DNA from: Piper betle
Taxonomy: Eukaryota; Streptophyta; Magnoliopsida; Piperales; Piperaceae
DNA: 64,000 nucleotides
Assembly: GCA_033002965.1 (NCBI GenBank)
Contig: JAURVB010001883.1
Location: 29,138 to 93,137, forward strand
Direction of reading: 5' to 3'
Shown here: piece by piece, positions 19,200-61,321 of the stretch
How positions within the stretch are numbered: the stretch's first letter is position 1
Layout of the letters: each line of letters starts with the position of its first letter
The notes under the pieces: model-generated
Told to the model about the DNA's origin: nothing
Seen by the model: the letters and a program-made list of their open reading frames with translations, nothing else
The model's database searches: none
Program-made: the position numbers and the translations under genes

Positions 19200-20216
19200 G
19201 GTTATGGCCGTCAACACTTCGCCGGAGTTCGCCGGCGTCGGAAAAAAGGAAGGAGCCTCGAAGCGCGGGAAATGCGGAAACCCTAATCCCCTTCTTCGTC
19301 CTTGGATTTCGGACGATGGGGAATCATGGGCCGCCAAAAACATGGGCCTTATCCATTTCCAGATGGGCTCTATTCAAAATGGGCCCGTTGGTTTAATCAA
19401 TTTTGTGTTAATTTAAAGAGTTGAACAAATCAGCCAATTAACCACCAACTAACCCAGTACTTTGGATTAAGTGCACTAAATCATAATTTTTGCTATAATC
19501 ATTTTTATTGTCAAAAAATAGAAATAATTTTCATTCTATTTGAGTATGTGTATACTTACTTTACTAGCTTAATCACTTAATCATCATAACCTCTTCGCTT
19601 AAACCTCGCTTGGTTCGGTAAGTAAGGACATCATTTTTTTATAATTAAATGAATAGTATAAACATGAATTTACGTGCTGCATCAAACTATAAATAGATAT
19701 AGTTTATTTCATATTCAACAAAAAATTAAAAGCCTCTCAATTGTGCTAGAAGAAAAAGACTTAAAATTGTTAAATATTTTATTATTTTTATTGTGTTTGG
19801 TTTTAGTCGTTTTTGACCTGACAACATATTTAGACATGGCAAATAAATACAAAAATTCAAGGTTTATTATTGGATTAGAAATTTTAAGCACACCCAGTTG
19901 AATATTATAAATTACTAAAATTATTGCGAACTCGGAGTAAGACTTTTCCTTTACAATACCGCCCTTGAGCTAATTAAAAAAATAATTATACAAAATTTAT
20001 CCTAAGTGTTAATTTATTTGAATTTGAGTTAAATTTTAATTTAAATAAAAATAAAAATTAATAGGACTTTATTTTTGTTTAAATTTAATTAATTGAGCTA
20101 ATACTCCAATTATTGGATTAGATTAGATTAGGTTAAATTAAATTGAATTAAATAGTTATTATGAGTAAAGAGAGGGAGTGGGGAGGGAGAGCAGGTCGAC
20201 GTCGGCGCCGGCGACG
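19200..20216. promoter_or_regulatory. Divergent promoter region of CCCH gene and FIE
   Basis: The CCCH gene (ATG 19136, minus) and FIE (ATG 20217, plus) are head to head with about 1.08 kb between start codons. Close to the CCCH side are a telo-box AAACCCTAAT near 19280 and four TGGGC(C/T) site II type boxes at about 19327-19390, elements linked to genes expressed in dividing cells. Near FIE the sequence is very AT-rich (repeated GGATTAGATTAG near 20110). Whether the boxes act on both genes is inference. Confidence 0.5.
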
Positions 20217-23200
20217 ATGGCGAGGACGGCGTTGGGGTGCGAGCCGGCGGTGGGATCGTTGACGGCGACGAGGAAGAAGGAGTACAAGGTGACGAACAGG
20301 CTGCAGGAGGGGAAGCGGCCCATCTATGCCATCGCCTTCAACTTCGTCGACGCCTGCTTCTACTCCGTCTTCGCCACCGCCGGCGGCAATCGCCTCACCG
20401 TCTACCACTGCCTCGAGTCCGGTGTCATCGCCGTCCTCCAGGCCTACATCGACGACGACAAGGACGAGTCCTTCTACACCCTCAGCTGGGCCTGCGACGA
20501 CGACGGCAGGACCCTCTTGGCCGCCGGCGGCATGAACGGTGTCATCCGTCTCATAGATGCAAGCAACGAGAAGATTCACAAGGTATTTACTCTTCTTTTT
20601 TTGAGTTTTAATGGGTGGAAGAGTAGAAAGTGTTGGGCTTAATTTTTAACTAGTAGATCGGTGAAACTAGTGGGAAAAATTGCAACTTGATGGTGAAACT
20701 TATGCTAGCTTTTGGATGATTGATCAGCTGACTCTCCTTGTCTTTGAATATGTTAGTAGAAGGAAATGTCTTATGTTCAATTGAATTGTTTGGGAAGGAA
20801 TATGTATGGAAGGGTATAGCCACAAATACATGTATTGGATATTTGCAGGGATTACCAGCTTACAGAGAAGATCAGTGGAGAAAATGTGGTCCATTTCCTA
20901 CTAGGAAGGAGGACAGGAGATCATTTAGCATTTAAATTTAATCTTTTGCTCACTATAACAAAGTGACAATTGTTTGTTGGACATTTTTTCAAATAAGGGA
21001 CTTATTCTTTGAAGCACTTTAAATCTAACAGGATTCAATCACGAGCTGAGTGGCTTCATGTTTTGTCAATTTTTTATGATTTATTAACCACTTTGCCTAA
21101 AAGCTCACGCAATCCGCACCGAGGAACAAATTATTATTTACTTTTAAGAAGAAACCTATTTGGGGAATGCAATAGCCATGTGACTCAGGGCCACCGGCTC
21201 AACACATTACAGCTCGTCTCTTCTTAGTGTTTGATTTGGATATGGGTATAAAAGATGCCAACTTTGAGAAAGCTGATCTTTTCTTTAATGTGTTTCATCT
21301 ATTGCAATATACAGAGTTTTGTTGGGCATGGAGAGTCAATAAATGAAATCAGAACACAGGCCTTGAAACCTTCTCTTATTGTCTCTGCTAGTAAGGTGTG
21401 TTCAGCATTCTTCACCACGGGTTTCATCTACTTATTTTGGGGCTTTAATAATATATTTTGGTTGATGATTCATAGCTCACTTTTGTGCGTCTGTGAACAG
21501 GACGAATCTGTTCGACTATGGAATGTGCATACGGGGGTGTGCATTCTGATATTTGCTGGAGCAGGTGGTCATAGAAATGAAGTTTTAAGTGTAGTGAGTG
21601 AAATTTAAGTTTTTCATATTTGTTCTAAGTTTTAAGTGAGTGTAGACAAAGATGTTTTTCAGCAAGGAAAAAATAAAGATTGATGACTGAGCTGATATAT
21701 TTCAGTTGCATCCCCCCACAGGACTTTCATCCATCTGACATATACCAAATTGCTAGCTGTGGAATGGATAATACTGTCAAGATTTGGTCCATGAAAGGTA
21801 TGGAAAAGTAGATTTGTCTGCTTCTTTTAGTCTTGGGAAGGATGATTTTGAGGTTTATTGATGGTTGCTCATGTTCTAGTTATGAATTATATTTCACATT
21901 TAAAACTAAACCTATCACAGCAAATCTTACAGTTACTGATGGCAATGCAATTTGTGCCCTAATAACTTGCAGAATTCTGGAAATATGTTGAAAAATCTTT
22001 CACTTGGTCGGACATTCCATCCAAATTCCCAACAAAATATGTTCAATTTCCTGTGAGTGTCAGTTAAGCTTGATATATATGTGCCATGTTTTAGAACATG
22101 CTATTTTGTGATTGTACTATGTTTCCTTTTCACATCAGGTTTTCATAGCATCCGTGCACACAAATTATGTTGATTGCAACAGATGGCTCGGGGACTTCAT
22201 TCTGTCAAAGGTAAATTTATACTGGACTTTCTTAATGCACTTTGGCATTTTGACATGAAGGGGAGTTAGGTCAAATGGTTCATACCAACAGTTGGTAAGC
22301 AACAAGAAATACCAACAGTTTTGCTTCATTCACGTTTTACTTTCATTTGAGTCGTAAGCAACAAGAAATACCAACAGTTGGTAGTGACTTGAAATGGACA
22401 TACCTTTATTGGCTTTGTTGCACAACAGAGTGTTGATAATGAAATTGTATTGTGGGAGCCAAAAATCAAAGAGCAGAGTCCTGGAGAGGTGCGAATTTCC
22501 CGTCGTACATTCTTAAAAGAGTAGATATGACCTCCGAAACTATTTTTGTTTCCATATATGTTTATAATTCCTCGCATAAAACGAATGGTTTTCTATGTAG
22601 GGTGTTGTTGATGTCCTTCAAAAATACCCAGTTCCAGAATGTGATATTTGGTTCATCAAATTTTCCTGTGATTTCCATTACAATGCAGCGGCCATTGGTA
22701 AAGCATTGTTTCAGCTTATACCATCTTCTTGACTTTGTAAGCCAAGTTCTGATTCTAAATGTTGGACACGTTACAGGAAATAGGGAAGGAAAAATATACG
22801 TCTGGGAACTGCAATCCAGCCCGCCTGTATTGATTGCCAGGTACGCCTAGCACACATTTAGTACCTATATCATTATTTTTTTCTTCAATTGTGATCTCTA
22901 GTTCGCTTTTATGTCAGGTTGTTAATGCAAATTTCTTTTTTCCATTTGATTATTTTTCTAAATTCAGACTGTCAAATCCCCAATGCAAATCTCCAATCAG
23001 GCAGACAGCAATGTCTTTTGATGGAAGGTATATTGTCAATGAACAAGTACGCTTGCTTCGAATGATATTGTTCAATCAATTTGCGAACATTAATTATTAT
23101 AATTTTAGACAGTGGTGATTTGATTTTTAATATACGAACAAAATGTTGTTGCAATCTAACGCATGGATCTTTTGCAGCACTATTCTTAGCTGTTGTGAAG

Positions 23201-40854: not shown

Positions 40855-43800
40855 ATGTCGAACGATGGGCAGAGGAGACAGGGCGGCTACTCCAATACCC
40901 CGTCTTTCCTTCCTTCTTCGCCATCGTCTGCTGGTCGCAGCAACGGTTTCTTTCCGAGCTCCTTGCGTGCCATCTCTAGCTACTTGAAGATTGTTTCGTC
41001 GGGGGCGTCCACTGTTGCTTCCACCGTTCGGTCGGCATCGGCCAACGTTGCGTCCTCGGTTTCTGATCGGGAAAGGGATAGCAAGCGTGATCAAGTATTT
41101 ATTTTTTGCTTTTTTTGTTTAGTGTCTATTGGTTTGGTATATCTGCAAGTTTTGGTAACGATAAGAAGTGAAATTCTAGTTTGAGCTGTTGCTGCTGGCT
41201 GCTTGTCGTTGAGTTCCAGATTGCAATGTTTGAGGGTGACTACCTGTTAAGTCTGAAAATTCATTGCTCGTTTTTTTTTCTCAAACAAATAATTCATTGT
41301 TTATGGTCTAGATTGGAATCAATTCTATATTGAACCATTGCTGGCTGCTTATCATTGAGTTGGAGATTGCACTTTTGAGTGTGACCATTTGCCATGTCTG
41401 GAATTTTATTTAATATCTTTATTTGGCATCAATTGTTAAAATTCATTGCTTCTTGGTGTGGCCATCTGTCAATTTTGAGAAATATTATTACCACTCTTTG
41501 GTATTAACGTTTGCAATTCATTGTTTATTTGGCATAGTTCAAGTGCTGTATTTTTTTATTTGTCTGGAGTAGTTTCTACTCAGCTTCTGTTCTTTATTTG
41601 TAGATGTTTTTGGCGTTATCTTATTTTTTTTACTGGGAACTATATTGCTTAATTGTCTTTGTAAGCTCAATTGTTTTGTTGGTGATGTTTTATTTTCAGG
41701 TACAGTGGGCTGGATTTGATAAATTAGAATGTGAAGGGGTTGTTCGGCGGGTTCTTCTTCTATGTTACAGGTCTGGCTTTCAAGTATGGGATGTTGAGGA
41801 GGGTGATGATGTTCGGGAGCTTGTATCTAGGCATGATGGCCCTGTTTCGTTTTTGCAAGTGCAACCCAAATTAGGACAGTCAAAAAGGCTTGATGATAAG
41901 TTTTCTGATGTCCGCCCACTTTTGGTTGTGGCTGGGGACGGTGTTCTTTATAATAGCAACTCTGTTGAAGAGGTGTTTTATTCTACCTCCAATGAGAATG
42001 TGAACAATTCCCATGAAGTAGAAGATAGAAGTTTTGTTCCAACATTTGTTCGTTTTTATTCCTTGAAATCACATTCTTATGTGCATGTGCTGAAGTTCAG
42101 GACGGCCATTTGCTCAATAAGATGCAGCCCTCGAGTGGTGGCTATCTCGCAGCCTGCTCAGGTATGTATTCGCTGCTTAAGTTTTGGAGAATGATCCAGT
42201 GGGCGCTATTGCTCTCTCTTCTCTTATATAATAGCTGTATGCATACAAATGGGTGTAGGAATTCCGCAGAGTGAATTGATAAACCTCGGTCACCTAGCAA
42301 ACTGAAAAATAGTTGCTCTGATTGATTATTTCTTGCATATCCTCAGCAATAAGTTTTTAAGACACTAACCGAAAGAGATTGCAATACATGCAGATTCACT
42401 GTCTAAATGCTACCACATTGGAGAAAGAATTTACTATTCTTACCCATCCTATTGCATTGGGAATCCCTGGTTCTGTGGGGAGAGGCTATGGACCTCTAGC
42501 AGTGGGATCAAGATGGTTGGCTTATAGTGGAAGTCCCGTGGCAATCTTTGACAGTGGTCGTGTCAGCCCACAACAATTATCTCGTGCAACTACTTTTACT
42601 TCTTCTAATGGCAGTTCGGTTGCCCGTTATGCAAAAGAATCTAGTAAGCAGCTTGCTGCAGGTATAATAACACTTGGAGACATTGGATACAAAAAGCTAT
42701 CAAGATATTACTCAGAACTTTTACCAGACGGAAACCATGCGATGAAGGTTTCTAATTCTAATTTGAATGGAACTGTAAATGGACATTTGGCAGACTCAGA
42801 AACTGTTGGAACGGTAATTTTTTTTCTTAACATTTTTGTTTGTCAGGTTTAAACTTCTTGTAGCATATGTCATTTAAGTTGTGTTGTTATCATGTTTGAG
42901 CATCCATTGACTGAGTTTTATACTAAATATTTTTTGTTCTCATAATTGATTCATGTATTCATTATCTTGCTTCTCAACATTTATTTTTATGTAATATTTT
43001 GTCAGGTTATAGTCAGAGATGTTATAAGTAAATCCGTGGTTTCTCAGTTCAGGGCACACTCTAGTCCCATTTCTGCATTATGCTTTGACCCTAGTGGAAC
43101 TCTCTTGGTAACAGCCTCTATTCAGGGACATAATATAAATATTTTTCTTATAAAGCCCTTTCCAGTCAGCACATCATCCGAGTTTGATGTAAATAAATCT
43201 TACATGCATCTTTATAGGTTGCAGCGTGGTCTCACCAATGCGGTTGGTGCCTACATCTCCCTTTTCATTATAGTTAAGGGTGTAACACTCAATTTTAAGC
43301 TGTCTTCTTTTCTACTACCAGGTCATACAGGACATCAGCTTCAGTGATGATTCTCAATGGATAATGATCAGTTCTTGTAGAGGAACAAGTCACTTGTTTT
43401 CCTTATCTTCTGCAAGCTGTAATTTGAACAAGCCAAAGAATGGCTACGGCACCATAACTAGCAATAATGGATTAAACTATGTTAATAAGTCATCTGTTCA
43501 CTGGCTGCCCACCACAAATTTGTCAAAGGCAAATGGGATTAGAAATTCTGCGTCAGGCTTTCCTGTCACCTTATCTGTGGTTAGTAGGATAAAGAATGGA
43601 ACCAATGGCTGGCGAGGAACTGTTAGTGGTGCGGCTGCTGCTGCCACTGGCAGAATAGACCCAATATCTGGTGCAATTGCTTCAGCTTTCCATAACTGCA
43701 AGGGTAATGATGTGTACACTAATGGCATCCATTTGGGTACAAGACGCCACCTTCTAGTGTTTTCTCCTCTAGGATCTTTGATACAATATGTTTTAAATAT

Positions 43801-45049
43801 GTCCTCCGGAGCAGATGTTGAGAACATTGTTACCGGATTGAAGAATGCATCTTGTGCATCAACTCAAGAAAATGACATGAGACTAATTGTTGAGGCAATT
43901 CAGAAGTGGGATATTTGTCAAAGAAAGAATAGAAGAGAACGAGAAGATAATGCTGACATATATGGTGAAAATGGGAATGCTGACAATAGCGGTCCTTTTG
44001 TGAAAGGGTTGAAAAATGATCCTAGTGTTCAGCCCACAGATACTGATACCTTCCCTGATGTAAATCAAAGTATTGAAGAGAGGCAACAATTATATATTTC
44101 TGAGGTTGAACTTGAAATGTATCCTGCTCGAGTTCCACTGTGGGCTAGATCTGAGGTAATATTTTGCATTTATAGATCTCAAAGCAATTTTGTTTGTCTT
44201 TTATGGTGTTCATTTTCTTTGTATTTAAGTTATGATTTTGTATGGCAGATCTATTTTCAAAAGATGGTTATGGATGATTTCAACACTACTGAAGATGCTA
44301 GCCATGGAGAGATGGAAATAGAAAAGTTATCAACCCGTGCGGTTGAAGTGAGACCTACAGATTTGATGCCAGTCTCTGATGCTATCCCGAGCCCAAGGGT
44401 ACAGCATTTGAGGTAATTTCTCTCAACTTGTCTAAAAACATGGATTAAGAAACAAAGCTATTATTAATAGTGCCAAAAAAAAACTCCCACCCTTTTACTG
44501 TTTTTATTTTTTATTTTTATTTTGTAGAAATTGATGAATAGTCTTGACAGGTCATATTTACTTTGGCTGTTAAGGCATGCTTTTGAGAAGACCTGTTTGA
44601 GCTTTTCCTAATTACTGTAGTCTCACCTGCTTTGGCCTTTGGAACTTGTCAATTTGATCTGAACTGACAACAAGGGTCTTTTATTCAATAAGCTGCTTCT
44701 ACAGCTGTTTTCATTTTTAGACAACCACTCTCTAAATCATGTGTTCTTTTGCACGATGTCAATTTCGAACCTCAAGCTCTGAGACTATTTTGTAGCTATC
44801 ACTTTTTACATGCTTAAGGAGCTTTCTAGTGTACCTATTTGACATTTCAAGCTATTTTGTGTTTTGTGCAGTGTGGCTTCTGCTGATTGTAATGATATTG
44901 AGCCCATTTTGCGTCAGAGCTCTGGAGGTGAAGATGCCAAAAGTGTTCCTTGCGAAAGTACTTGTACATATGCCGATTTCGTATCTGGTGGAGCTTCTGT
45001 GGTTGATGAAATCCTGACTGATCTAACTGAAGGAAGGCACTGTAAATGA
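40855..45049 (+). CDS. ATG18: ATG18f/g/h-like autophagy protein (PROPPIN with BCAS3 domain)
   Basis: Seven exons: 40855-41094, 41700-42161, 42394-42813, 43006-43242, 43322-44155, 44249-44412 and 44872-45049, all in phase, 844 residues. The N-terminus has SLRAISSYLKIVSSGASTVA, typical of plant ATG18f/g. The WD40 propeller includes YRSGFQVWDVEEGDDVRELV, RHDGPVSFLQ, FRAHSSPISALCFDPSGTLL and LYRLQRGLTNAVIQDISFS. LQRG stands where yeast and animal PROPPINs have the phosphoinositide-binding FRRG. A BCAS3-type region follows (IYFQKMV and VPLWARSEI-like sequence). Such proteins bind PI3P on autophagic membranes. In the last exon, GAAGGAAGG at 45029-45037 leads to a stop at 45049, yet the adjacent frame stays open for about 48 codons with protein-like sequence (KFVNSKTSRKMESQLQFV) to 45194. 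A GAAG duplication or a consensus error may hide the true C-terminus. Confidence 0.92.
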
Positions 45050-49394: not shown

Positions 49395-49770
49395 TGTTGG
49401 GTTTATCTGAATGATATTTGTAGGCAACTGATGATTTATATACAAATTAATATAAAAATTTTATTTCTTAAGCTAATTTTTAAATTAAGAGAAGCCCGTA
49501 AAACCTATTGCAAGTCTTATTTGATCGGTAGTGATATTATAATTTCCTAAAACTTCATTATAATATGTAGAATATGAATTTAACATATAGTGAGGGAGAG
49601 ATGATTAAGGTGATATGATGTATAAGGGGGAGAATTATTAGGTTTATCCCACATTATATTTGAAGATGATTGGTGATTTAGGTTGACGGGGAAAATCTTA
49701 TTCTTTAAATTAATTTTTTATATTAAAGGAGACTTGTGAAACCTTGCAAGTTCACCGGATGTTTTATGAG
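49395..49770 (+). mobile_element. Degraded TRIM retroelement, plus orientation
   Basis: TGTTGGGTTTATC at 49395 and the sequence to about 49510 (ACTGATGATTTATATACA; TTAAGAGAAGCCC) match the LTR of the intact TRIM at 50783-51376 read on the minus strand. A second LTR-like copy starts near 49636 (ATTAGGTTTATCCCACATTA), preceded by a purine tract AAGGGGGAGAAT at 49624-49635 that fits a polypurine tract. Ends are decayed and no clear PBS survives. Confidence 0.55.
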
Positions 49771-50480
49771 TTAATTAAATAGTTAGCACACTCTTTATAG
49801 GCTTTTACAAGGGTGGTATGGTTGAATTTGTTGGGTTCGAATTGGCCTTAATATTATTGTCTTGGAAATAACATTATAGATAATGGTAGTTCTCAAAAAG
49901 ATTATTGATTATTTTGAATATTTAATTCAGTTAGATTTATCCCATACGTAATGGTTATGATGCAAATTAACTATAAATCAAGGCTAAAAGACTCATTACA
50001 TTAAACAATGTCTTATGGTTGATTAAGGGCATTCATATTAAATCATTATATATGAAGGTTGACAATGAACCACTCTAGCTCAATGATACAGTTAATTCAT
50101 CTTTAGCTCATTTTAATCTTGGGCTTATAGCTCATCTTAATCGAATTAAGTAGCTAAAGTTGACATTTTCCCAACTCGGCTGGACTTAGTGCTGTTCTCA
50201 AACCAATAATTTTTTTTTTACCTTAATTTTTTGAAAACTATTAAGGATGATAGTGAAAAATTAAAATGATTTTATTTTATTTTATTAGCGGGTCTTGTTC
50301 AATTTTAGTAATTATACTCTCTCTGTCTCTCTTCAAAGATATGATTTACACCTTTGTATTATTTTATTAATATTTGATTTTTTAATATGAAATTTTTATT
50401 TTTTTATTGAAATTACTATAATTTACCCTCTATTTAATTATATATTGCATAAAATATATTAGCATTTTTGAAGGTTCAAT
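49771..50480. other. AT-rich region, no gene seen
   Basis: Low-GC sequence without recognisable genes. It may contain further TRIM debris. Confidence 0.4.
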
Positions 50481-50782
50481 TTTAAAAGATCATAGTAGTG
50501 AGTGGCGTTGATGGGCTTTCCACCACTACATTTGTGAAGAAGATGATCCGATCGAGTGCAGTATTACTACAAAGCTCGCCGACAACAATGGTTTCCACTG
50601 CCCCTCTCAACCACACCCTCCCCTTCCCACCCCACCTACTCCACCCCAAGACGTCCCCCTCGTCCTCCCTCTTTCTCATCCCCACCTCCACTTCACCATC
50701 CTCGACGGCGTCGCCGTTGACGAAATATTTCCCGACCTTGTCCACCTCCCTCACTAGTGCTCCAGATAGTCTCTGACCTGCC

Positions 50783-51376
50783 TGTTAGGCCCTTTGGGCC
50801 CCCACCCAAGCTCCAAAATTACTGTTGGGCCCTTTAGACCCTCAAAAAGGACTTTAAACAACTAAAAGAAACTCGCAATATGTGTCACGTACCTCTCTTA
50901 ATTTAAAAGCTAGCTCAAGAATTAAGACTTTTCCATTGCCCTATATACAAGTCACCAACAACCACTACGACCGATGTGGGATAAACCTAACAACTCCTCT
51001 TCACACATCGAGGCGTGACCCAAAACCATCATCGTTTGACACACTCCCCTTAAATTAGACAACACCCACTTGACAAATTCATCTTCAAATTATCAGGTGG
51101 AACCCATGAAGGAAATAATAACAATCGGCGTAGGCAAACCCGGCTCGAACTTGACTCTGATACTACTTGTTGGGCCCTTTAGGCCCCCACTCAAGCTCTG
51201 AAACCACTGTTGGGCCCTTCGGGCCCCAAAAGGGACTTTAAACCACCAAAAGAAACTCGCAATAGGTGTCATGAGCTTCTCTTAATCCAAAAGCTAACTC
51301 AAGAATTAAGACTTTCTCATTAGCCTATATACAAGTCACCAACAATTATTATGACTAATGTGGGACAAACCCAACA
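50783..51376 (-). mobile_element. TRIM retrotransposon with two LTRs and target duplication
   Basis: Direct LTRs lie at 50783-50992 (210 bp) and 51168-51376 (209 bp). On the minus strand each begins TGTT(A/G)GGTTT and ends GGGCC(C/T)AACA. The internal region is only 175 bp with no coding capacity. Next to the minus-strand 5' LTR is AGTAGTATCAGAGTC, a near match to the initiator Met-tRNA binding site (TGGTATCAGAGC). Next to the other LTR is a purine tract GAAGAGGAG. Flanks CTGCC (50778-50782) and TTGCC (51377-51381) form a 5-bp target duplication with one mismatch. These features define a terminal-repeat retrotransposon in miniature, dependent on other elements' enzymes. The LTR contains snRNA-type promoter motifs, listed separately. 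Confidence 0.88.
50942..50982 (-). promoter_or_regulatory. USE-like and TATA pair inside TRIM LTR
   Basis: On the minus strand, ATCCCACATCG at 50982-50972 matches the plant snRNA upstream sequence element (RTCCCACATCG), and TATATA lies at 50947-50942. The gap is 24 nt. The other LTR keeps the arrangement: GTCCCACATTA at 51366-51356 (9 of 11) and TATATA at 51331-51326, again 24 nt apart. Plant Pol III-type U-snRNA promoters (U6, U3) use 23-24 bp spacing, Pol II-type about 10 bp more. Confidence 0.6.
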
Positions 51377-51709
51377 TTGCCCGCCAAGCGTAACCCACCG
51401 CCCAAACTGCTCCTCCTATGGCCGACCCCCCAGCTAACATCCCTTGCCGGCTACGATTCTGACTCTGTTATCAACTCCAAGCTCGAGTCTTTGGGTGATC
51501 TCCGGCCGAGCCTGGCCGGTGTGGACGTGGTGGTCTTCTTCTCACTGGCGAGCTCTCAACTGGGTTCGATGAGGGAGATATGCAAAGCATTCCATCCAAA
51601 GCCGGCTAAGCTATGAGAAGGAGGGGGAGATGGCGGGTAGCTTCATGAGGTGGTCTACTCATTCATGGGTCTGGAGGTGACAGGGTTGTTGAGCAGGAAG
51701 AGGGGGTGC

Positions 51710-51786
51710 AAGGATGGTGGGCTTGGGGGAGGGGAAGGCAGGGAGATAAAGGATGGTGGGCTTGGGGGAGGGGAAGGCAGGGAGAT
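51710..51786. repeat. 38-bp tandem duplication, G-rich
   Basis: Two copies (51710-51747 and 51749-51786) share GGATGGTGGGCTTGGGGGAG and GGGGAAGGCAGGGAGAT. They follow the broken coding stretch and extend its open frame with a repeated GGLGGGEGRE peptide, which is probably not meaningful. Confidence 0.85.
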
Positions 51787-51901
51787 GATGGTGGAGGGGG
51801 AGGGCGGGAAGACAGAGCTTGTGACCAGAGGCGGAAACAAATATATCAAATTAATAGATATTGCTCTCTTTGATACTTAAAATTGATTAATATATGATTT
51901 A

Positions 51902-60060: not shown

Positions 60061-60385
60061 GGGCCATATGAGCACTAAAAAAGACTTGAAATAAGTTTTA
60101 TAAATTTCTTTTAATTTAAAAAGTTAGTATAATAAATAATATTTGTTAATTTAACTTATATACAAGTCATTAACACTATTTATATTTAATATAAAATTAA
60201 ATTAATAATTCTCACCCTCACACATGTTAGGTTTATTTATTATATTGAAATTTTTTATGAGTTAATCTTATATCAAGTATAAATAATATTGATGGCTTAT
60301 ATATAAATTAATAAGAAAATCTTATTTTTTAAATTAATTTTTATTTAAAATTAACGTAAAAATCATATTTTAAGTCGTTTTGGGG
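60060..60385. mobile_element. Degraded TRIM fragments in opposite orientations
   Basis: 60063-60190 resembles the TRIM LTR in plus-strand reading (GGGCC, AAAAAGACTTGAAA, ATTTAAAAAGTTAG, ATATACAAGTCATTAACA). 60228-60370 resembles it in the opposite sense (TGTTAGGTTTATT, TTGATGGCTTATATATAAAT). Both are heavily decayed. The head-to-head arrangement suggests two insertions or an inversion. Confidence 0.45.
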
Positions 60386-60539
60386 GCTATAGGGCTCAAC
60401 ACTTTCCCAGGTCTTTTGTATTTTGCAGTTGGGTTCTTCGTGGAGTTGTTTGAGAATTTAGTTTTACTTGAAAGATTCAGTTTCTTGACGCAGTATCACG
60501 GAAATTTGCGGATGTTTTAAAACTGACCAAGATACTTTG

Positions 60540-61321
60540 CACGCCACAAAGATCACTCTGTATCCTCACTAAGTCATCGAAATGGCCGATGGAACGAACT
60601 CACAGCTTGTTATCTCTATGTTTCATCCAGATGATGCAAAAGGGAAACTTTTCTGTTGAAAGGGCTTATAAGCATATTTCTGCTGTTGGGAATCATAGAC
60701 ATGACCTTCTCATCAACTGGTCTAAACGGTGGAGGCTTAAGATTCCTCCTCGGCTTCTTTTATTTTGGCTGGAAACTGGCTAGGAACTTGCTGCCTTCAC
60801 AGGAAAATTTGATGAGCCAAACAATTATTATTAAAGAATCCTCTTGTCTTCTCTTCTTCGAAGATAGGGAAGATGTGAATCACCTTCTTCTCTACTGCCC
60901 TGCTCTTAAAGCTCCTAGTTTTGCCACTTTGGGCCTTCACTCATCCCCTTCCTTTGTTACCACAGGATCTGCTTTGATTGATATTTGCATTACAATGCCA
61001 GAGCATTTGCCTTCGGCGCATGAGTTAGTTCTCAAGCTGCTTATAAACTTGGAAGAGCTGTGGAAAGCTGGGAATCAAAAACTGAGACTAAGAAATCAAG
61101 CATATAAATATCAATCGCCTTGTTCATTCTTTATGTTCACCATAAAGCATCTACTTACTCACTCTAAGCTTTTGAATCTCGAAGAAGAAAGACTAATCGG
61201 AAGACAACCCGCTAAATTATTTAACCGAGAGGTTACTTTTGGTCTAACCCCAAGCCCCAACAACAATACACAAAATAATGTAATAATAAACAACATTGCA
61301 TGCCAAATGACAAAGAATTAA
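60540..61321 (+). mobile_element. LINE reverse-transcriptase zinc-binding region remnant
   Basis: Translation gives KFSVERAYK-like sequence, then INWSKRWRLKIPPRLLLFW (about 60714-60772) and, after a +1 shift, LARNLLPSQENLMSQ and FEDREDVNHLLLYCPALKA. This is the order of the zf-RVT region at the C-terminus of plant L1-type elements: W-lKiPprv-lF-W, then C-x2-C and H-hl-CP. The first Cys pair is degenerate. The frame at 60656-61321 stays open past the domain. No endonuclease or catalytic RT is present, so it is a 5'-truncated, dead copy. Confidence 0.65.

What the first reader, a model, noticed from the sequence alone, without database searches (positions are those of the whole stretch)
50783..51376. 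TRIM LTR carries a U-snRNA-type (Pol III spacing) promoter
Seen: in both LTRs, on the coding strand of the element, a USE-like box (ATCCCACATCG; GTCCCACATTA in the other copy) is followed by TATATA after exactly 24 nt (50982-50942 and 51366-51326). Known: in plants, USE plus TATA at 23-24 bp directs Pol III transcription of U6/U3, while about 10 bp more gives Pol II. Spacing is kept between LTRs although the sequence between differs. Inference: this non-autonomous retroelement may use an snRNA-like promoter, comparable in spirit to the 5S-derived Cassandra TRIM.
Basis: partly seen in the sequence, partly recalled or inferred. Interest (0 to 1): 0.75.

Follow-up and report, generated by a model that had tools for sequence, protein, structure and literature searches.

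The report
snRNA-type promoter in plant TRIM LTR
An old, tiny retrotransposon carries in each of its terminal repeats a motif pair that matches the promoter of plant small nuclear RNA genes, which suggests, but does not show, that some plant mobile elements are copied by the snRNA transcription machinery.

Summary
Minus-strand element 50783-51376 is a complete TRIM: 209/210-bp TG..CA LTRs, a 5-bp TSD with one mismatch, an initiator-Met-like PBS. USE-like boxes (11/11 and 9/11 to RTCCCACATCG) lie exactly 24 nt before TATATA in both LTRs; exact USE + TATA at 23-24 nt appeared in 0 of 300 shuffled windows. New: four decayed LTRs of the family in the window. In three, the USE differs only by C-to-T/G-to-A changes; the aligned gap is 24 letters in 6 of 6, but TATATA stands there in 4 of 6. 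Counting all differences, the USE is no better kept than the average LTR window. Primers printed in papers put an exact USE in an apple TRIM and probably an avocado LTR. Against full-length Pol III transcription: four T4 runs before the 3' LTR, the first 33 nt after TATATA. Verdict: plausible snRNA-type LTR promoter, polymerase unresolved; not Cassandra (no 5S) or Helenus (no tRNA). The genome search did not complete and there are no RNA data; a Pol II LTR whose box is not a USE is nearly as likely.

The parts
50783..51376 (-). complete TRIM (non-autonomous LTR element, 594 bp)
   Evidence: TG..CA ends, direct repeats, flanking CTGCC/TTGCC
51168..51376 (-). 5' LTR, 209 bp, TGTTGGG...CCCAACA
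50783..50992 (-). 3' LTR, 210 bp, TGTTAGG...CCTAACA
51356..51366 (-). USE-like box of 5' LTR, GTCCCACATTA (9 of 11 to RTCCCACATCG), LTR nt 11-21
51326..51331 (-). TATATA of 5' LTR, 24 nt after USE, LTR nt 46-51
50972..50982 (-). USE-like box of 3' LTR, ATCCCACATCG (11 of 11)
50942..50947 (-). TATATA of 3' LTR, 24 nt after USE
51289..51292 (-). T4 run (possible Pol III stop), 33 nt after TATATA; LTR nt 85-88
51151..51165 (-). primer-binding site TAGTATCAGAGTCAA, 2 nt inside the 5' LTR; resembles the initiator-Met tRNA type (motif recalled)
   Evidence: read
50994..51002 (-). purine stretch GAAGAGGAG just upstream of the 3' LTR (putative PPT)
   Evidence: read
49395..49541 (+). decayed LTR B5 of a second insertion; USE broken by a 1-nt deletion; a literal TATATA starts 2 nt before the aligned column
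   Evidence: nhmmer envelope
49636..49775 (+). decayed LTR B3; USE ATCCCACATTA at 49646-49656, TATA lost
60062..60204 (-). decayed LTR C; USE position reads ATTTTATATTA, TATATA kept at 24 nt
60238..60399 (+). decayed LTR D, inverted relative to C and nearly abutting; USE position ATCTTATATCA, TATATA kept at 24 nt
   Evidence: nhmmer envelope

Best explanation
The element is an old TRIM, presumably moved in trans by the enzymes of a full-length LTR retrotransposon. Its LTR most likely carries an snRNA-type core promoter: the USE at LTR nt 11-21 is recognised by the plant SNAP complex, TBP sits on the TATATA 24 nt downstream, and transcription starts some 25 nt further on, around LTR nt 75. The spacing is that of Pol III snRNA genes (U6, U3), so Pol III initiation is the first guess, as in the 5S-driven Cassandra TRIMs; Pol II initiation from the same SNAPc/TBP platform is not excluded. 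Shown: element anatomy, motif identity, 24-nt spacing, traces of the motif in other insertions, exact USE in printed primers for other plants' retroelements. Inferred: that the host is a plant (no call names it), binding by SNAPc, transcription start, which polymerase, use in transposition.
For: Exact USE and TATA at Pol III-like spacing, 0 of 300 shuffles. Published rule: USE one helical turn closer to TATA in Pol III than in Pol II snRNA genes, consensus RTCCCACATCG (PMC9845283 passages); barley U3 has USE 25 bp before TATA and TATA 23 bp before the start (PMC6181210 passages). Six LTRs of the family in the window: the stretch between the USE and TATA columns is 24 letters in 6 of 6. In B3, C and D 12 of 12 USE differences from A3 are C-to-T or G-to-A and 0 of 33 cells differ otherwise; of 120 windows of 11 nt the USE is the only one with none, site-resampling P 0.0019. 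Exact USE in the printed reverse primer for the apple TRIM AY603367, in avocado primer PaRBIP-6R, and in a Prunus mume small RNA that shares TGTAACATCCCACATCG with the apple primer. Of the 4 papers in the library that hold both 'CGATGTGGGA' and 'transpos', 3 are these and 1 is a mouse paper.
Against: Counting all differences, the USE window has 17 in B5, B3, C and D against a median of 16.5; 68 of 120 windows have as few or fewer. The favourable test sets deamination-type changes aside and leaves out B5, whose USE has a deletion; both choices were made after seeing the data. With B5 the USE window has 3 non-deamination differences, 21 of 120 windows are as low, P 0.058, and two other LTR blocks do as well or better. 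Only 8 indels occur in all copies, so an indel-free 24-nt gap is weak. TATATA has no C or G and so resists deamination; its survival is no proof of constraint; B5 reads TATACA and B3 has lost it. T4 runs at element nt 85, 126, 146 and 352 lie before the 3' LTR and would tend to stop Pol III. No transcript, binding or genome-wide family data. The Pol II-type gap and the exact 23-24 figure for Pol III are recalled.
Confidence: 0.42

Rival explanations
1. Ordinary Pol II LTR promoter: TATATA at LTR nt 46 is a normal TATA box, and the TCCCACATCG-like box is a general LTR-start motif bound by some other factor (for example a TCP-type GTGGG binder; recalled), not by SNAPc. The 24-nt gap is inherited from one master copy.
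For: Most LTR-element transcripts in plants are Pol II made (PMC12786077 passages). The box lies close to the LTR end (nt 11-21), where LTRs are conserved anyway: the windows over LTR nt 1-20 are also low in non-deamination differences. T4 runs along the element fit Pol II better than Pol III.
Against: An exact 11-letter match to the snRNA USE, its orientation and Pol III spacing are not predicted by it.
Confidence: 0.38
2. Pol III does start at the LTR but makes only short, prematurely ended RNA; genomic RNA for transposition comes from Pol II. Two RNA classes from one LTR would echo the dual-promoter BARE element.
For: T4 33 nt after TATATA in A5 and A3, and a T run of four or more at the same place in 6 of 6 aligned LTRs; BARE makes two RNA classes from two TATA boxes (PMC12786077 passage).
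Against: A stop about 10 nt after the start would give no stable RNA, and may not be read as a terminator so early; no data.
Confidence: 0.1
3. Chance resemblance in one old element, spread to its other copies by descent.
Against: 0 of 300 shuffles; an exact USE also in printed primers for an apple TRIM and probably an avocado LTR.
Confidence: 0.1

Closest known systems
[quoted passage not shown]
   Same: size, LTR pair, PBS, short TSD, no sizeable coding region
   Different: snRNA-type USE+TATA is not described in the main text of the plant TRIM survey PMC4717578 (0 uses of promoter, TATA or snRNA by word search; its supplements not seen)
Cassandra (5S-driven TRIM), Helenus, Ajax; together 'TRIMp3' (PMC10886601)
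   Same: TRIM with a Pol III-type promoter inside the LTR, in spirit
   Different: those carry 5S- or tRNA-derived promoters; here an upstream (type 3) pattern; no 5S or tRNA match in the element; a word search of that paper finds neither snRNA nor type 3
Plant U6/U3 snRNA and telomerase RNA genes (type 3 Pol III; PMC9845283, PMC12133305, passages)
   Same: USE RTCCCACATCG, TATA, short gap
   Different: no snRNA sequence follows (Rfam); T4 runs inside the would-be transcript
Trypanosomatid Pr77 retrotransposon promoter (PMC8190864, abstract read)
   Same: retrotransposon promoter reported to be bound by TBP and, weakly, SNAP50
   Different: non-LTR elements; no USE/TATA spacing code in the abstract
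Apple TRIM AY603367 (PMC3127826, passages)
   Same: exact ATCCCACATCG in a printed primer for it
   Different: neighbouring letters differ (TGTAAC before the USE); that this is its LTR start is my inference; its spacing to a TATA box was not seen

Membership tests
TRIM | short direct LTRs with TG..CA ends | tested here: met
   209 and 210 bp
TRIM | target-site duplication of 4-6 bp | tested here: met
   CTGCC/TTGCC, one transition
TRIM | PBS and PPT, no coding capacity, under 1 kb | tested here: met
   594 bp; PBS-like and purine stretches read; no ORF of 150 aa or more overlaps it (shorter ones not listed)
Cassandra | 5S rRNA sequence in LTR | tested here: not met
   no 5S match in 50700-51460 at E up to 10; the one match was a sub-threshold Histone3 stem-loop on the other strand; none at gathering score in the window
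Helenus | tRNA-like sequence in LTR | tested here: not met
   no tRNA match
TRIMp3 (Pol III-transcribed TRIM) | Pol III transcription | not testable with these tools
   needs RNA data
plant type 3 (snRNA) promoter | USE RTCCCACATCG | tested here: met
   11/11 and 9/11
plant type 3 (snRNA) promoter | TATA at Pol III spacing (about 23-25 nt) | tested here: met
   24 nt, both LTRs; barley U3 25 bp
plant type 3 (snRNA) promoter | transcript free of T4+ runs until its end | tested here: not met
   T4 at element nt 85, 126, 146, 352, before the 3' LTR
plant type 3 (snRNA) promoter | block conserved above flanks across family | tested here: inconclusive
   non-deamination differences: P 0.0019 without B5, 0.058 with it; all differences: average, 68 of 120 windows as low

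The most novel reading that the evidence does not exclude
Many unrelated plant LTR elements, TRIMs above all, begin with a true USE and are transcribed through SNAPc, and spacing to TATA decides between Pol III and Pol II in them as in snRNA genes: a type 3 'TRIMp3' class that has been overlooked.
Probability: 0.22. Interest if true: 0.85.

Novelty: new variant of a known kind. Interest (0 to 1): 0.56.

Why it matters
Cassandra is called the only validated Pol III-driven TRIM lineage (PMC10886601 passage). A USE/TATA LTR would be an snRNA-type retroelement promoter in plants, of which my searches (open-licence texts, partly capped lists) showed no report. It would link transposon output to the snRNA machinery and would explain why the same 11 letters turn up in retroelement primers from apple and avocado. 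It is directly testable by reporter assay and 5'-end mapping.

Tried and rejected
Whole-genome family census: the genome search on the window's own assembly was asked 15 times with the same request and never answered.

Rejected: that equal spacing in the two LTRs shows constraint (near-gapless duplicates); that surviving TATA in decayed copies shows constraint (no C or G to lose); Cassandra or Helenus membership.

Literature: searches listed no paper whose title or abstract links the snRNA USE to plant LTRs. Lists were capped for (20 of 340; 20 of 44; 20 of 54); only open-licence texts are held; most listed papers were not opened. Passages in three listed papers were unrelated primers, and one paper on snRNA promoters held nothing on plants. 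A wide occurrence of TCCCACATCG at plant LTR starts is also my recollection, which I could not test.

Full report
What is there. The finding's coordinates bound a complete TRIM on the minus strand, 594 bp: 5' LTR 51376-51168 and 3' LTR 50992-50783, TG..CA ends with TGTTGGG/CCCAACA-type inverted termini, a 5-bp target duplication with one transition (CTGCC/TTGCC), and, two bases inside the 5' LTR, TAGTATCAGAGTCAA, which resembles the initiator-Met PBS (recalled motif; read). The LTRs differ at 33 of 209 aligned positions, 29 of them transitions, with one gap column; K2P 0.186. The element is old and its changes look like decay of methylated DNA. No call names the host; that it is a plant is inferred from the TRIM and from the neighbouring genes.

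The promoter-like pair. In both LTRs a USE-like 11-mer at LTR nt 11-21 is followed by exactly 24 nt and TATATA. The match is 11/11 in the 3' LTR and 9/11 in the 5' LTR. Exact USE plus TATA[AT]A at 23-24 nt: 1 in the window, 0 in 300 shuffles; up to two mismatches: 3 (two LTRs and one TA microsatellite) against a mean of 0.023. The USE-like 11-mer alone at two mismatches is only weakly enriched, 25 against 17.2, 6 of 100 shuffles with as many. The two LTRs are copies of one site, so this is one event, not two, and their common spacing proves nothing.

A second look inside the window. BLAST and nhmmer found four more, decayed LTRs of the same family: B5 and B3 (plus strand, about 49.4-49.8 kb), C (minus) and D (plus) at about 60.1-60.4 kb; they stand for at least two further insertions. 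In the MAFFT alignment the stretch between the USE column and the TATA column is 24 letters in 6 of 6. That is weak by itself, since only 8 indels occur in the five copies compared with the 3' LTR (A5 0, B5 1, B3 3, C 2, D 2). TATATA stands at its column in 4 of 6; B5 reads TATACA there, with a literal TATATA two bases earlier, and B3 has lost it. The USE position reads ATCCCACATTA in B3, ATTTTATATTA in C and ATCTTATATCA in D: 12 of 12 differences from the 3' LTR of the main element are C-to-T or G-to-A. Of 120 windows of 11 nt the USE is the only one with no other kind of difference in these three copies, and drawing sites at random within C/G and A/T classes gives 6.8 expected and P 0.0019.

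Results against it. With B5, which has a deletion in the USE, there are 3 such differences, 21 of 120 windows are as low, and P is 0.058. Leaving B5 out, and setting deamination aside, were decided after seeing the data. Counting all differences in the four copies, the USE window has 17, the median is 16.5, and 68 of 120 windows have as few or fewer. With all four copies a second block around TTGGTGACTTRTATATA (window starts 34-38) and a third before and around the first T run (starts 72-86) are as well or better kept. So the family's founder very likely had the full USE, but constraint above the flanks is suggested, not shown.

Elsewhere. No plant genome could be searched, so I looked for retroelement sequence in print. 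The reverse primer for the apple TRIM AY603367 is, reversed, ATTGTAACATCCCACATCGC (PMC3127826, passages); its place in that TRIM is not stated in the passages, and that it is the LTR start is my inference. Avocado PaRBIP-6R is, reversed, GGAGTCCCACATCGACTATAGAG (PMC12692301, passages); each pair has one LTR primer and one locus primer, and that this is the LTR one is my inference from the sister R primers, two of which share a core. Both hold an exact USE. A Prunus mume small RNA listed as miR6282 is, reversed, TGTAACATCCCACATCGATCAAC (PMC3464595, passage). Only 4 papers in the library hold both CGATGTGGGA and 'transpos'; three are these, the fourth is a mouse paper. The distance from these USEs to a TATA box is not known to me from any call.

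Polymerase. The Pol III rule rests on PMC9845283 (passages: USE one helical turn closer to TATA than in Pol II snRNA genes) and PMC6181210 (passages: barley U3, 25 bp and 23 bp). By this rule the start would be near LTR nt 75. But T4 runs stand at element nt 85, 126, 146 and 352, all before the 3' LTR, and 6 of 6 LTRs have four or more T at the first place. A full-length Pol III RNA would have to pass four such runs. T4 may be a weak stop (recalled), and Cassandra also ends inside its 3' LTR with a terminal duplication of only 18 bp (PMC10886601, first of six parts read), so Pol III is not excluded.

Place among known things. It is a TRIM. It is not Cassandra or Helenus, since no 5S or tRNA match exists, and for the same reason not Ajax. 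A word search of Kojima's TRIMp3 paper finds neither snRNA nor type 3, and one of the TRIM survey PMC4717578 finds no promoter, TATA or snRNA in its main text. A SNAP50-linked retrotransposon promoter is reported in trypanosomatids (PMC8190864, abstract). Searches listed no plant report; one search showed 20 of 340.

Verdict. Real and better than chance; an snRNA-type LTR promoter is the leading reading at about 0.42, hardly ahead of a Pol II LTR whose box is not a USE (0.38).

Noticed in passing
49395-49775 (+) and 60062-60399: Further, strongly decayed LTRs of the same TRIM family; C and D lie almost abutting in inverted orientation, as if two insertions or a rearranged one.
   Followed up: partly
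PMC3464595, miR6282: A Japanese apricot 'miRNA', reversed, shares TGTAACATCCCACATCG with the apple TRIM primer, so it may be a TRIM-derived siRNA and not a miRNA.
   Followed up: no
20178-20642 (+): Exon of an EED/FIE-like Polycomb gene (matches EED chains; the plant name FIE is recalled; no Pfam match at 0.001).
   Followed up: partly
41604-44416 (+): Exons of a BCAS3-domain gene (Pfam BCAS3_WD40 and BCAS3; ATG18-like by recall).
   Followed up: partly
50588-50776 and 51378-51800: GC-rich flanks of the TRIM: a 62-aa ATG-initiated frame ends just before it, and the right flank has several stops in the one frame tried; perhaps an old gene fragment that the TRIM hit.
   Followed up: partly
60656-61321 (+): Fragment with a zf-RVT domain, as in LINE-type elements.
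   Followed up: no
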